Shown piece after piece: positions 16,699 through 21,179 of a stretch of DNA of 28,728 nt. The stretch is from the NCBI GenBank assembly GCA_024692105.1, contig JAILMZ010000020.1, forward strand, positions 1 to 28,728. The letters run 5' to 3'. This stretch comes from Saccharofermentans sp. (GTDB lineage: Bacteria; Bacillota_A; Clostridia; Saccharofermentanales; Saccharofermentanaceae). A program made the translations under genes and the position numbers. Position 1 is the stretch's first letter. Each line of letters begins with the position of its first letter. Under the pieces are notes generated by a model. That model did not search any database, was not told the DNA's origin, and saw only the letters and a list, made by a program, of their open reading frames with translations.

Positions 16699-16739
16699 AT
16701 TAGTTAACAAGAGTTAATCATAAAAGGAAGGTGCTTCTT

Positions 16740-18668
16740 ATGGTCAAAAGATTCAGTAAGAAACAGGGAAGCAAGCAGGGCGTAATACTCCTGACTGTTG
16801 TCTTCATCCTTGCAATGGCGATCATCTTCATCGCTGCCTGCATGGTAATGACCCAGGCGACGAGGAATCGTCTGTATTGGAAGGCTGAACAGAGCCAGGC
16901 AAGACTTACAGTTACGTCTGCTGCCGAAGCTTTATATCAGGCGTTGCTTGTCGGAGACTTCAAGGAATCCGATCTCAAGACATTGGCTTCGCAGCAGGCA
17001 ACCGGAATCTTAATAACTGCCCAGGGTCCGGATGGTTATCTTCCTGGCATGTCTACTGATTCCAAAAACTGCACTACTCTTTCTCTGAAGAGAAAAGATG
17101 CTACGTATAGCGAGATCTATGCGTACTTGACTACTACGATTGGCGATGAGTCAGAGAACGTTAAAATTACTTTTAAAGTAAAGCCTAAGACTACTCCAAC
17201 CGGTCTTTTCGGAAACCCTGTTGACTATAACGGTACAGTAGGACAGCTCAACTTCGAACAAATGGGCTATGTTATTGGAGGCGGAACCAAGAGCGATAAC
17301 TTCCTGGTAGTACGTAAAGGCTGCAATGATGCGGATACTTCATCCAACATTTATTCAAAGATTGTATTCGTCGGCGGTAATGTTACTTCACTCAGAGCAA
17401 ATTTACATCCAGGCGCGGATGTTATTCTGCTCGAGTCGGCAAAATGGGGCATCAACGATTATGATCCTAAGCCTGTGTCAGCGGCAGGTGCAACACCTAA
17501 TTACTATTTTGTAAGTTCAGGAAGCACTTCAGAAGCTCTGACGAAGAGTATGCAGTACAGTAATTTCTCAACATCGGGTTCCATTGTTTTTGTTAACCGT
17601 GATATTAATGAGAGCATGCTTAATTCCGATTCAAACCCGGTGTATTCGTTTGATTTAAGCGGAAATTGGAATACTGGTGCGACATACAATTCTGGTTCAA
17701 ACACACTTACAAAGCCTGCGGATTCGGTTCTTTCATCTGCATATGCCAATGCTTCTGTTTACTCAAGTGAGGATTTCTCCAAGAATTCTATTGGTTCATT
17801 CCCGACTACTTCACAGGCTTTCACTAAGCTTGGTATAGATCAGGCTACTCTTGATGCCGGTACGGAGATGACTCTTGATCAGTTCGTAAGTAAATATGGT
17901 AATCAGAGTGCAACTGATACTAAGCCTATGGTTGGTGATGATAATACTTCTAACCCGGGAATAGAGACAGCGTGCATTAAGATTACTACCGGCGGTACTA
18001 TAGGAACAGAAGCTAATGACGGAACGTCACGTTATACTTTCCTATTTGATGGTGGTACAGATTATATTATCTACTTTACCGGCACGGTAAACATGTCAAA
18101 GTGTACTTTTGCTGTTGTAAATCCGGATAGCAGTCATAATCAGTTGATTGTTCTGAAGAAAGGTGCAGATCTTAATATCAGTATAAATGATGCTCAAGGT
18201 GACGCTTATGATGGAGCAGGTTTCCTGTCAGTTCCCCGTGGTACTAATTCAGCATCTACGTCAGCATACCTGACATATATCTACGGTACAGATATTCCGG
18301 GTGGCGAGATGACACAATCGGCGGCTGTATCATCTTATTATGACTCTACCACCAAACCTACGTTCTATGTTATCGGAGCGGGTGACAACCAGGTCTTATT
18401 TGGAGCTTCCAGCTACTTTGAAGGATATCTCGGACTGTTCAATCCGGATACTACTACGACTTCACAAGTATCATGCTCTGGAAACGGCAGTACTGGTCAG
18501 TTCCTGTACGGAAGAATGATGTTTGACGGATGGAACTCCGGTGGTGACGCTGGTAGATTCTATATGCCTTATTGTCCGGGTCCTGGCGATAATTCGTCTC
18601 CGGATGATGTAGAGCTCTATGAGTTCGGTTATACCGTATTAAAAGTCGATTACTACTTCACAGAATAA
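16740..18668 (+). CDS. Orphan PilX-like (pilin-type N-terminus) surface protein
   Basis: 642 residues. A short basic start (KRFSKKQGSKQG) is followed by one hydrophobic segment (about 16-36) and an amphipathic helix with SQARLTVTSAAEALYQAL. This is the layout of PilX-type minor pilins, except that the Glu at position 5 of mature type IV pilins is missing. The rest is a large, Ser/Thr/Gly/Asn-rich, beta-type domain; near the end, FGASSYFEGYLGLFNPD and GQFLYGRMMFDGW recall domains seen in other PilX-like proteins. No pilus assembly genes lie nearby. ATG 16740 is chosen over a GTG at 16731 because AAGGAAGG is correctly spaced only for the ATG. Codons are visibly richer in A and T than in the neighbours. 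The gene is a single transcription unit closed by a strong terminator. Confidence 0.65.
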   Translation: MVKRFSKKQGSKQGVILLTVVFILAMAIIFIAACMVMTQATRNRLYWKAEQSQARLTVTSAAEALYQALLVGDFKESDLKTLASQQATGILITAQGPDGYLPGMSTDSKNCTTLSLKRKDATYSEIYAYLTTTIGDESENVKITFKVKPKTTPTGLFGNPVDYNGTVGQLNFEQMGYVIGGGTKSDNFLVVRKGCNDADTSSNIYSKIVFVGGNVTSLRANLHPGADVILLESAKWGINDYDPKPVSAAGATPNYYFVSSGSTSEALTKSMQYSNFSTSGSIVFVNRDINESMLNSDSNPVYSFDLSGNWNTGATYNSGSNTLTKPADSVLSSAYANASVYSSEDFSKNSIGSFPTTSQAFTKLGIDQATLDAGTEMTLDQFVSKYGNQSATDTKPMVGDDNTSNPGIETACIKITTGGTIGTEANDGTSRYTFLFDGGTDYIIYFTGTVNMSKCTFAVVNPDSSHNQLIVLKKGADLNISINDAQGDAYDGAGFLSVPRGTNSASTSAYLTYIYGTDIPGGEMTQSAAVSSYYDSTTKPTFYVIGAGDNQVLFGASSYFEGYLGLFNPDTTTTSQVSCSGNGSTGQFLYGRMMFDGWNSGGDAGRFYMPYCPGPGDNSSPDDVELYEFGYTVLKVDYYFTE

Positions 18669-18731: not shown

Positions 18732-18759
18732 ATGACAAAAATAATATTAATAATATAAT
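18732..18759 (+). promoter_or_regulatory. Promoter of the murT-gatD operon
   Basis: ATGACA (18732-18737), a 16-base spacer and a perfect TATAAT (18754-18759). It sits between the terminator of the previous gene and the GGAGG ribosome binding site of murT. Confidence 0.6.
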
Positions 18760-18784
18760 AAGAGTACGGATCAGGAGGTAATCA

Positions 18785-20173
18785 ATGAAAGGATTAAGGT
18801 TCTGTCTTGCTCTTTGGCTTGCAAAACTCTCGATTCCCGCACTTAAGTTAACTCACCATAACGGAACGGACTATCCCGGACATCTTGCACTCAAGGTTTG
18901 TCCTGATTTTCTTGACAGGATAGAGAAGCCGCCGCTTGTTATTGCTGTTACGGGTACCAACGGTAAGACTACATGCACGAACATGATCTGCGATGCTTTC
19001 GAAGCAGCAGGCAAAAAGGTGCTCTGCAACAGATACGGTTCTAATATCAATTCAGGTGTATCCACCTGCCTGATCACAGGTTCCACACTGACCGGCAAGA
19101 CCAAATACGACACGGCGATCCTTGAGACGGACGAGCGTTCGGCTCCGAGGATATATCCGTATCTCAAACCCGATTATATCGTTGTGACCAATCTGTACAG
19201 GGATTCCATAATGCGCAACGCACATCCCGAGTATATTCAGTGGGTCATGAACAAAGGCATCCCGCCGAAGAGCAAGATGGTCATCAACGGTGACGATCTA
19301 ATCTCATGCGGAATCGCACCGGATAACGAGCACATCTACTACGGCATCGGCAAGCTCGCTTCCGATACGACAGAGCAGGTCAACAGACTCTGTGACCTGA
19401 GGATATGCCCTGAGTGCGGCAGAAAACTCGTTTTCGATTACCGCAGATACCACCATATCGGAAGGGCACACTGCTCTAACTGCGGATTCAAGTCTCCTGA
19501 ATACGATTACGAAGGACACGATATCGATAAGGAAGCCGGAACAGTCAATGTCACTGACAAGGACGGCACCAAGGCTTACAAGATCGCTAACGACAGTCTG
19601 TTCAACATATATAACACAGTCATGACCGTGGCCCTGATGAGAGACCTGGGTTTCCCTGCTGATGAAGTTCAGTCTCTCATGGACAAGGTCAAGATCCCAC
19701 CCACGAGATTCTCCCGCGTTACGGCAGGACCTTGCACGATTACGACACAGCTTGCCAAAGAGATGAATGCGCTTGCCGTTACCCGTGCCACAGATTATGT
19801 AAGGCATCAGCCGGGACACAAGAGACTGTTCCTTCTGCTTTCATGCTATAAGGTCGCAGAGAACTGGTCGGAGAACATGGGCTGGCTGTACGACTGCGAT
19901 TTCGAGATGATGAACGATCCCCTTATAGATACGTGTGTCGTTACGGGCCCGCGTGCGCTGGACTTCAAACTCAGGCTTCTTCTTGCGGGTGTTCCCGAAG
20001 AGAAGATCCTCTGCAGCGAGGATGAGCGTGAAGCGGCAAAGAAGATGGATATAGCAGCAGGCGACAGCATCTACATCTACTGCGGCATGGTCGAAGGTTT
20101 CGGCGTGGTTGATGACTGCAGGAAGATCCTGACGGAGCGTTGCGAGGCTTTAGGCGGAAAGGAGCAGGCATGA
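18785..20173 (+). CDS. murT: MurT-like Mur ligase with altered amidotransferase-coupling region
   Basis: 462 residues with the layout of MurT, the ligase subunit that works with GatD to amidate the D-Glu of lipid II. The ATP loop VTGTNGKTT (55-63) and the MurT zinc ribbon (Cys208, Cys211, Cys230, Cys233) are intact. Other conserved blocks are not. NFFRDQxDRFGE reads NLYRDSIMRNAHPE; LAKNPAG reads LAKEMNA (323-329); and the NDNAADGRDxSW block reads SCYKVAENWSENMGW (353-367) with two extra residues. That block carries the Asp reported to complete the GatD triad in Staphylococcus aureus. WLYDCDFE and VTGPRA downstream align well, so the reading frame is whole. GGAGGTAATCA supports the start. ATGA overlap with gatD. 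It may be a paralogue with a changed reaction. Confidence 0.85.
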   Translation: MKGLRFCLALWLAKLSIPALKLTHHNGTDYPGHLALKVCPDFLDRIEKPPLVIAVTGTNGKTTCTNMICDAFEAAGKKVLCNRYGSNINSGVSTCLITGSTLTGKTKYDTAILETDERSAPRIYPYLKPDYIVVTNLYRDSIMRNAHPEYIQWVMNKGIPPKSKMVINGDDLISCGIAPDNEHIYYGIGKLASDTTEQVNRLCDLRICPECGRKLVFDYRRYHHIGRAHCSNCGFKSPEYDYEGHDIDKEAGTVNVTDKDGTKAYKIANDSLFNIYNTVMTVALMRDLGFPADEVQSLMDKVKIPPTRFSRVTAGPCTITTQLAKEMNALAVTRATDYVRHQPGHKRLFLLLSCYKVAENWSENMGWLYDCDFEMMNDPLIDTCVVTGPRALDFKLRLLLAGVPEEKILCSEDEREAAKKMDIAAGDSIYIYCGMVEGFGVVDDCRKILTERCEALGGKEQA

Positions 20174-20907
20174 TAATAGAAGTATTGTTCCCGGAAGTCG
20201 CAAACCTTTACGGAGATCTCGGCAACATTGAGTACATTTCCCGTTCGCTTGAAGCAGCAGGCAAAGAGTGCGAGATCATCAACACCGATCTGTACACACG
20301 CCCCGCATTCGCGGACAGGGATGACATAGACCTTATCTACATGGGCCCCGTTACGGAGAAAGGCCAGATCAGGGTCATCGATTCGCTTATGCCGTACAAG
20401 GAAAGGCTCGCCCAGCTGATCAAAGACGGACAGAGATTCTTCATGACGGGTAATGCCGTTGAAGCATTGGGTGAATACATAGAGTGCGAAGAGGGCGGCG
20501 ATAAGATCGAGTGTCTCGGTCTGTTCCCGTTCATGACCAAACAGCGCATGATGGCACGCACCAGCTCGTTTTGGGTAGGCCAGTATGAGGGTCTCGATGT
20601 GGTAGGTTACAAGAGCCAGTTTACCCACATCTATCCAAGCGATGAGAAGGCCGTAACGAGTCTGTTTACGACAGAGAAGGGCGAAGGACTTAATCCCGGT
20701 TTCAGCGGAGAGGGTATTAAGGAGAATAATTTCGCCGGCACATATCTTCTCGGACCGCTGTTTGTCCTCAACCCGCTGCTCCTGAAGAAGTTTCTCGAAG
20801 ATCTCGGCTGCGAAGGCTGCGCACCGCTCTTCGAAGAGGCTGCGATGGAAGCATACAGGAAGCGTCTGGACGAATACCGCGAGCCGGGACGCAATTATAA
20901 GTATTGA
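20170..20907 (+). CDS. gatD: GatD-like protein lacking the catalytic Cys and His
   Basis: 245 residues with the fold of GatD, a class I glutamine amidotransferase. EVANLYGDLGNI (9-20) and AGTYLLGPL (189-197) mark the family. In canonical GatD the nucleophile is in ICGGYQ and the base in GTYLHGP. Here the first reads MTGNAVE with Thr93 in place of Cys, and the second has Leu194 in place of His. The GGG after the third strand is GPV (59-61) and the glutamine-binding GGRT is also absent. Glutaminase activity by the known mechanism is therefore not expected, while complex formation with the MurT-like partner still seems likely. The ATG at 20170 overlaps the murT stop (ATGA); AAAGGAG lies upstream. 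The frame is open back to 20140 but lacks a better start. Confidence 0.85.
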   Translation: MIIEVLFPEVANLYGDLGNIEYISRSLEAAGKECEIINTDLYTRPAFADRDDIDLIYMGPVTEKGQIRVIDSLMPYKERLAQLIKDGQRFFMTGNAVEALGEYIECEEGGDKIECLGLFPFMTKQRMMARTSSFWVGQYEGLDVVGYKSQFTHIYPSDEKAVTSLFTTEKGEGLNPGFSGEGIKENNFAGTYLLGPLFVLNPLLLKKFLEDLGCEGCAPLFEEAAMEAYRKRLDEYREPGRNYKY

Positions 20908-20924: not shown

Positions 20925-21179
20925 ATGCACTACGAATATGCACCTCAGGGAGTTTGCGCAAACAGGATAGATTTTGATATTGACGAGCAGGCGAAGATCA
21001 CAAACATCAGCTTCACCGGCGGATGCAACGGCAACCTTAAGGCCATAAGCAAGCTCTGCGACGGCATGACCGCCGATGAGATCGCAGGAAAACTTGCAGG
21101 GAACACCTGCGGATTCAAGAATACTTCCTGCGCAGACCAGTTCTCCAAAGCAGTACTCGAAGCAAAATCAAAACTGTAA
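20925..21179 (+). CDS. TSCPD-domain protein (TIGR03905 type)
   Basis: 84 residues. GVCANRIDFDIDE, FTGGCNGNLKAISKLCDGM and the terminal TSCADQFSKAV identify the small stand-alone TSCPD proteins. The TSCPD motif is otherwise found at the C-terminus of vitamin B12-dependent ribonucleotide reductases; the cysteines suggest metal or redox chemistry, but no function is established. The start is the ATG with AAAAGGAG seven bases upstream; a TTG 21 bases earlier lacks this. It follows gatD by 17 bases and is probably in the same operon. Confidence 0.92.
   Translation: MHYEYAPQGVCANRIDFDIDEQAKITNISFTGGCNGNLKAISKLCDGMTADEIAGKLAGNTCGFKNTSCADQFSKAVLEAKSKL

What the first reader, a model, noticed from the sequence alone, without database searches (positions are those of the whole stretch)
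18785..20907. MurT/GatD pair in which the whole shared catalytic triad appears lost
In Staphylococcus aureus the amidotransferase uses GatD Cys94 and His189 plus MurT Asp349. Here the GatD positions are Thr93 and Leu194, the GGG and GGRT elements are also gone, and the MurT NDNAADGRD block is replaced by SCYKVAENWSEN. Yet both genes are full length, overlap by ATGA, keep the MurT ATP loop and zinc ribbon, and have a good promoter. Coordinated loss on both subunits argues for a second, changed Mur-ligase complex (ammonia- or amine-using ligation, or a regulatory role) rather than decay.
Basis: partly seen in the sequence, partly recalled or inferred. Interest (0 to 1): 0.72.

Follow-up and report, generated by a model that had tools for sequence, protein, structure and literature searches.

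The report
MurT/GatD pair without a glutaminase site
A cell-wall enzyme pair that normally takes nitrogen from glutamine has lost the glutamine-cutting site on both partners, keeps its ligase site, and belongs to a large conserved group in gut and rumen bacteria, so these microbes probably modify their walls with free ammonia or another amine.

Summary
Window MurT (18785-20173) and GatD (20170-20907) have the MurT/GatD folds, but GatD Cys94 and His189 are Gly94 (not Thr93) and Leu194, and MurT Asp349 is Asn364.

This is not decay. dN/dS against four close relatives is about 0.03-0.05 (MurT) and 0.07-0.10 (GatD). Of 176 GatDs extracted, 146 lack the Cys-His pair; none of these has the His, and 2 have a Cys. 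No Cys or His is conserved elsewhere in 119 window-type GatDs. MurT residues for ATP, Mg2+ and the acceptor carboxylate are kept. The clade shares new signatures: GatD G-N-[A/S]-x-[E/D], and a His in the MurT active-site loop where canonical MurT has Glu (131 of 137).

It is not a "second" complex. In 188 genomes of one order, canonical and triad-less GatDs never co-occur (78 and 74 genomes, partly classed by score; about 31 shared expected).

Best reading: a glutaminase-independent MurT ligase in the canonical pair's place, with GatD structural, probably fed by free ammonia, as the S. aureus GatD C94G mutant is in vitro. An amine or amino-acid donor is the main rival; an ATP-grasp ligase adjoins the pair in 28 of 94 related loci, not in the window. 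Substrate and product are untested. I found no description in the open papers searched.

The parts
18732..18759 (+). promoter-like site ATGACA-16-TATAAT
   Evidence: consensus scan, 11 of 12; 2 sites found against 3.4 in shuffles, so weak
18773..18778 (+). AGGAGG ribosome-binding site of murT
   Evidence: sequence read directly
18785..20173 (+). MurT-like Mur ligase, 462 aa
   Evidence: AF2 mean pLDDT 84; best PDB hits are S. aureus and streptococcal MurT
18953..18970 (+). MurT P-loop GTNGKT (residues 57-62)
19199..19228 (+). MurT active-site loop RDSIMRNAHP (139-148) with the clade's new His147
   Evidence: His in 131 of 137 triad-less MurTs with a letter there, 0 of 26 canonical
19406..19483 (+). 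Cys4 zinc ribbon (C208, C211, C230, C233)
   Evidence: 137 of 137 triad-less and 26 of 26 canonical with letters there
19841..19876 (+). SCYKVAENWSEN block (353-364) replacing NDNAADGRD; Asn364 opposite S. aureus Asp349
20170..20907 (+). GatD-like protein, 245 aa, glutaminase residues absent
   Evidence: AF2 mean pLDDT 92; best PDB hit 6gs2_A, TM 0.83
20449..20463 (+). GatD GNAVE (94-98) in place of CGGYQ
20557..20559 (+). GatD Arg130, equivalent of the glutamine-capturing Arg128, retained
   Evidence: 143 of 146 triad-less, 30 of 30 canonical
20740..20757 (+). GatD TYLLGP (191-196) in place of TYxHG[PS]; Leu194 opposite His189

Best explanation
The pair is a glutaminase-independent form of the MurT/GatD lipid II amidotransferase. 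MurT binds ATP, phosphorylates the alpha-carboxyl of D-Glu in the peptidoglycan precursor, and an amine attacks the acyl phosphate. GatD no longer hydrolyses glutamine but stays as an obligatory structural subunit. The nitrogen donor is most likely free ammonia, plentiful in gut and rumen, as in CPS1. Shown: loss of the triad, its conservation, retention of the ligase residues, the predicted folds, and mutual exclusion with the canonical pair in one order. Inferred: that D-Glu is still the acceptor, that GatD is needed, and that ammonia is the donor.
For: Ligase residues that S. pneumoniae work tested or implicated (K59, N85, E110, D112, E113, N132, R135, D136, R140, N273, R304, K321, N322) are the same residue in at least 124 of the 136-139 triad-less MurTs with letters there, and all are present in the window. 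S. aureus GatD C94G, the substitution seen here, loses glutamine-dependent but keeps NH3-dependent amidation at pH 8.5, and still needs GatD (PMC3266927 passages and Table 2). S. aureus MurT D349N, also the substitution seen here, abolished (legend) or severely reduced (text) activity in vitro (PMC6113224 passages); S. pneumoniae D355A only reduced it (PMC6085368 section 12). The types exclude each other in 188 genomes: 78 canonical, 74 triad-less, 0 both; 54 of the 78 and 54 of the 74 were checked by sequence. GatD also lost Cys and His beside an otherwise canonical MurT in L262 and L263, so the glutaminase can be lost while the ligase side stays unchanged. CPS1 is a precedent: its glutaminase-like domain has Ser for Cys and the enzyme takes free ammonia (PMC4655335 passages).
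Against: A merely structural GatD should not keep the glutamine-capture Arg (143 of 146) nor gain Asn95 (145 of 146) and Glu/Asp98 (141 of 146); that looks like a ligand pocket. The MurT block and loop changed too, beyond loss of Asp349. In some subclades an ATP-grasp ligase is an operon neighbour. With the S. aureus enzyme, ammonia worked only at pH 8.5, not 7.5. The MurE specificity motif does not argue for one shared stem type: canonical hosts are mixed. No data on position-2 chemistry of these hosts were found.
Confidence: 0.42

Rival explanations
1. The complex ligates an amino acid, diamine or other primary amine, not ammonia, to the alpha-carboxyl of D-Glu; the old glutamine pocket of GatD now binds that amine or amino acid.
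For: Retained Arg130 (carboxylate capture) with new acidic Glu/Asp98 and Asn95 in the pocket. New loop His where MurT lacks the His that other Mur ligases use. ATP-grasp ligase (PF14397) within 90 bp in 28 of 94 related loci, in several arrangements, 0 of 20 canonical. N-acetylputrescine on D-Glu is reported in Cyanophora (a passage and a reference title of PMC3266927).
Against: No ATP-grasp near the window or near 20 triad-less loci of its order. Mutual exclusion with canonical pairs suggests the same job. No such muropeptide known to me in these taxa.
Confidence: 0.3
2. The ligase acts on another acceptor, such as another carboxyl of the precursor or a cell-surface polymer, so the pair left the D-Glu pathway.
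For: The DNAAD-type block proposed to contact the third stem residue is replaced. PF14397 is described as sugar-transfer associated.
Against: Acceptor-carboxylate and Mg2+ residues N85, D112, E113 kept; mostly one pair per genome, never beside a canonical one in the order studied.
Confidence: 0.15
3. GatD kept or regained a glutaminase by other residues, or acts only as a glutamine sensor for MurT.
For: Arg130, Asp16/Glu and Glu63 kept; pocket residues conserved.
Against: No Cys or His conserved above 50% in 119 window-type GatDs; two of three oxyanion-type glycines lost.
Confidence: 0.07
4. The pair is decaying or inactive.
For: Loss of all three triad residues.
Against: dN/dS 0.025-0.046 (MurT) and 0.07-0.10 (GatD) among the window and L001-L004; ligase residues and zinc ribbon kept.
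Confidence: 0.02

Closest known systems
MurT/GatD lipid II isoglutaminyl synthase (S. aureus, S. pneumoniae)
   Same: fold, ATP loop, Mg2+ and acceptor residues, zinc ribbon, two-gene operon
   Different: no GatD Cys and His, no MurT Asp349; GNxxE pocket motif, RNAHP loop and WSEN block instead
S. aureus GatD C94G mutant complex (laboratory mutant, PMC3266927)
   Same: Gly at the nucleophile position, GatD present
   Different: here also His and Asp lost, pocket and loop rebuilt; donor not tested
CPS1, ammonia-dependent carbamoyl phosphate synthetase (analogy only)
   Same: glutaminase-like domain with lost nucleophile, retained as a domain
   Different: unrelated synthetase; CPS1 ammonia use is established, here inferred
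archaeal MurT-like without GatD (PMC11915815, passages)
   Same: MurT relative without an active glutaminase partner
   Different: species with only MurT-like have no GatD; here GatD is kept and conserved

Membership tests
MurT/GatD lipid II isoglutaminyl synthase | MurT_C (PF08353) and Mur ligase middle domain above cut-off | tested here: met
   67.9 and 35.7 bits
MurT/GatD lipid II isoglutaminyl synthase | NCBIfam equivalog cut-offs for MurT and GatD | tested here: not met
   172 of 800 and 42.6 of 400 bits; no GatD in 188 genomes of the order, canonical ones included, reached 400, so not discriminating
MurT/GatD lipid II isoglutaminyl synthase | GatD Cys-His glutaminase pair | tested here: not met
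   Gly94 and Leu194
MurT/GatD lipid II isoglutaminyl synthase | MurT Asp349 completing the triad | tested here: not met
   Asn364
MurT/GatD lipid II isoglutaminyl synthase | MurT ATP, Mg2+ and acceptor residues | tested here: met
MurT/GatD lipid II isoglutaminyl synthase | Cys4 zinc ribbon | tested here: met
   metal binding itself not tested
MurT/GatD lipid II isoglutaminyl synthase | MurT/GatD fold | tested here: met
   predicted models: Foldseek 6gs2_A TM 0.83 for GatD; 6h5e_B top by E-value and 9sqj_BBB TMq 0.71 for MurT
MurT/GatD lipid II isoglutaminyl synthase | glutamine-dependent amidation of D-Glu in lipid II | not testable with these tools
   needs assay
class I glutamine amidotransferase (CobB/CobQ type, PF07685) | gathering score and catalytic Cys-His | tested here: not met
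   23.8 of 27 bits; no Cys/His

The most novel reading that the evidence does not exclude
Triad-less MurT/GatD is an unrecognised Mur-ligase class that attaches an amino acid or other amine to the alpha-carboxyl of D-Glu in gut and rumen Clostridia. GatD has become an amine-presenting subunit, in some lineages together with an ATP-grasp ligase. It could be an enzyme for peptidoglycans substituted or cross-linked at D-Glu.
Probability: 0.24. Interest if true: 0.86.

Novelty: new variant of a known kind. Interest (0 to 1): 0.62.

Why it matters
In 66 of 80 sampled species genomes with this GatD only one MurT was found, so annotations that predict glutamine-dependent D-isoglutamine in such walls are probably wrong about the nitrogen donor and perhaps about the product. 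Position-2 chemistry affects cross-linking and recognition of wall fragments by NOD receptors. The pair also separates the structural from the catalytic role of GatD, and it makes the donor question directly testable with purified proteins.

Tried and rejected
Second canonical pair in the window's genome: not testable, no genome held; I used relatives instead.

Relocated catalytic Cys/His in GatD: searched for, none.

Decay: rejected by dN/dS. The WIN-L115 comparison was saturated (GatD dS undefined; MurT dS 4.25) and is not used.

Single origin: the concatenated tree of 80 rows (thinned from 162) gives one change, support 100. A MurT tree of 71 rows (thinned from 183; L263 fell out) that includes loci of the class sample needs 3 changes and starred branches force at least 2, but the AU test does not reject one (p 0.33). 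The number of losses is therefore open. Both are quick trees with long branches.

Third stem residue as a difference: MurE was read in 28 of 30 chosen genomes (G154 and G003 gave no match over the cut-off). A first regex failed, a second read part, and an alignment read the rest. DNPR: 8 of 8 window-type, 4 of 4 Q-type, 5 of 12 canonical and 0 of 4 other triad-less hosts; 3 canonical hosts have DNSR. So window-type hosts look mDAP-like, but canonical hosts are mixed and no clean separation or match exists. I had counted this as support for "same job"; it is weaker than that, and I lowered the best reading from 0.43 to 0.42 and raised the other-acceptor rival from 0.14 to 0.15.

Gene context of the window (TSCPD protein, glycosyltransferase, exonuclease): no peptidoglycan link seen.

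ATP-grasp: no NCBIfam model, no PDB relative, no paper in the held library. Fisher p 0.003 (28 of 94 against 0 of 20), or 0.013 with the 21 other triad-less loci added, ignores kinship.

The neighbour picker took an antisense ORF for gatD in 13 of 81 loci; one search used profile hits instead. The first Cys/His regex on L270-L289 picked wrong sites; one search read them by alignment.

Full report
OBSERVATION. The window holds an intact murT-gatD operon: MurT 18785-20173 (462 aa), GatD 20170-20907 (245 aa), overlapping by ATGA. MurT aligns with S. aureus MurT at E 3e-48; GatD aligns with S. aureus GatD at E 5e-9. Predicted structures match the solved complexes best: GatD pLDDT 92, 6gs2_A TM 0.83; MurT pLDDT 84, best hits 6h5e, 7q8e, 6gs2, 9sq9/9sqj and 6fqb. 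Profile-profile alignment to canonical clostridial pairs puts Cys94 opposite Gly94, Gln98 opposite Glu98, Arg128 opposite Arg130 and His189 opposite Leu194 in GatD, and Asp349 opposite Asn364 in MurT.

NOT DECAY. dN/dS between the window and L001-L004 (MAGs titled Ruminococcaceae or Clostridiales; L003 from buffalo rumen) is 0.025-0.046 for MurT and 0.07-0.10 for GatD. In the 120 best listed relatives plus the window, GatD Gly94 and Asn95 are 121 of 121. MurT Trp361 is 121, Glu363 120 and Asn364 119 of 121. These are the best 120 of 399 GatD and of 2738 MurT hits.

A LARGE CLADE. The genome scan found 242 places that encode a relative of GatD and kept the best 80. I extracted 176 GatDs from the 174 loci held at that point (L001-L174) and the window. 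Thirty have Cys and His; 146 do not. Of the 146, none has His at the His column, 139 have Gly at the Cys column and 2 have Cys, 145 have Asn next, 141 have Glu or Asp in place of Gln98, and 143 keep the Arg. Of 140 paired triad-less MurTs, the zinc cysteines are kept in 137 of 137 with letters there. The ligase residues K59, N85, E110, D112, E113, N132, R135, D136, R140, N273, R304, K321 and N322 (S. pneumoniae numbering, from PMC6085368 sections 11-13) are kept in at least 124 of 136-139; D136 is the lowest, with Glu in 13. N270 is kept in 100 of 138. The set was collected by similarity to the window's GatD and is therefore enriched in its kin.

TWO TYPES. Window-type MurTs (119) have Ser or Thr after the loop Asp, and Asn at Asp349 in 105. 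A second type (18, called Q-type here, "intermediate" in my notes) keeps Gln in the loop and Asp349 in 17 of 18 (the other a gap), but has lost Cys and His. Three of the 140 fit neither. Both types have a His where canonical MurT has the loop Glu: 113 of 119 and 18 of 18, against 0 of 26 canonical. PMC6085368 notes that this loop in MurT lacks the His that coordinates Mg2+ in other Mur ligases. The new His is not at the same alignment position, so equivalence is only suggested.

ONE PAIR PER GENOME. PF08353 in the 80 genomes that gave loci L001-L080: 66 have one match, 13 have two or three, 1 has none (its locus begins near the contig end). All 14 extra copies are triad-less. In the 188 held genomes of G001's order, 78 have a GatD scoring at least 126 bits with NF045636; 54 of these were fetched and all have Cys and His. 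The other 24 are classed by score alone, and score is no proof: in the class sample four GatDs with broken sites score 130-158 bits. All but three of the 78 score at least 173 bits, and the three lower ones (G119, G118, G253) were fetched. Another 37 genomes score at least 125 bits with my triad-less profile (all 37 fetched, none with both Cys and His), and 38 score 66-97 bits with NF045636 (18 fetched, all triad-less, Q-type); G002 has both of the last two. A contig-end fragment in G096 and a weak hit in G110 were left out. No genome has canonical and triad-less; about 31 would be expected (Fisher p 6e-25, ignoring kinship). Many of the genomes are draft assemblies and their completeness is not told. 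In a class-wide sample of 148 genomes NF045636 hit 100 (some of them CobB/CobQ-like long proteins) and the triad-less profile 82; I did not class them all.

FURTHER LOSSES. Twenty loci of that class sample, chosen mainly for middling scores, were fetched. Four have Cys and His (L258, L259, L261, L264), eight resemble the Q-type and two the window's wider type (L256, L257). L262 and L263 have a canonical MurT (Asp349, loop RDQMDRYGE) with a GatD lacking Cys and His; L255 keeps Cys but has Asp for His; L260 has His but Gly for Cys; L250 and L254 are a further divergent type. On the MurT tree dead and active sites need 3 changes, but one loss is not rejected. So the glutaminase can be lost while MurT stays canonical.

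MECHANISM. In S. aureus, C94G kills glutamine-dependent amidation, leaves ammonia-dependent amidation intact at pH 8.5, and GatD is still required (PMC3266927, passages and Table 2). D349N abolished (legend) or severely reduced (text) activity in vitro (PMC6113224, passages). The natural pair carries both equivalents plus loss of His189. With the ligase residues kept, the simplest reading is a MurT ligase taking its amine without glutaminolysis. Ammonia is favoured because the pair fills the canonical pair's slot and because CPS1 shows the same kind of evolution (PMC4655335 passages). Abundance of ammonia in gut and rumen is general knowledge. MurE gives little help: DNPR in 8 of 8 window-type and 4 of 4 Q-type hosts, but only 5 of 12 canonical and 0 of 4 other triad-less ones. 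An amine or amino acid donor is a serious rival because the GatD pocket is rebuilt and conserved, the loop gains a His, and an ATP-grasp ligase (PF14397) lies within 90 bp in 17 of 80 first-scan and 11 of 14 extra-copy loci, upstream, downstream or on the opposite strand. It is absent in 20 canonical loci, in 20 triad-less loci of the window's order, and in the window itself.

LITERATURE. Searches of the held open library listed no paper describing triad-less MurT/GatD; subscription journals are mostly missing. PMC6085368 states that murTgatD is widespread in Clostridiales (passage) and PMC11915815 builds a 229-sequence MurT/GatD tree (passages); the passages read say nothing of missing catalytic residues in GatD. 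A gut peptidoglycan review gives mesoDAP for Blautia and Faecalibacterium and mostly blanks for Lachnospiraceae (PMC11382707, passages). A 2025 paper on an unusual MurC and peptidoglycan in Lachnospiraceae was seen only as a reference title.

VERDICT. Real, conserved, widespread in Clostridia, and a new variant of a known enzyme. Substrate and donor are open and directly testable.

Noticed in passing
L062:359-1417 and 27 further loci: ATP-grasp ligase (PF14397) beside triad-less MurT/GatD in 28 of 94 loci, in several orientations; 0 of 20 canonical loci.
   Followed up: partly
L266 (G092), 640-2778: MurT followed directly by a Peptidase_C26-type class I amidotransferase instead of GatD: possible replacement of the glutaminase partner.
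   Followed up: partly
L265, L267, L268, L269: MurT genes with no GatD hit in the fetched flanks, some with Asp349-type motifs: solo MurT or distant partner.
   Followed up: no
L165 and L166 (G089, G088): Natural MurT-GatD fusions of 822 and 734 aa with Cys and His present.
   Followed up: no
L139 (G086), L144 (G087): Triad-less GatDs with Cys or His at the nucleophile column and Met at the His column; G086 has two such genes about 2.3 kb apart.
   Followed up: no
window 20925-21179: TSCPD-domain protein (TIGR03905) starts 17 bp after the gatD stop and may be co-transcribed.
   Followed up: no
window 16731-18668: 645-aa protein with an N-terminal hydrophobic segment and no Pfam match, ending before a hairpin that lies upstream of murT.
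   Followed up: no
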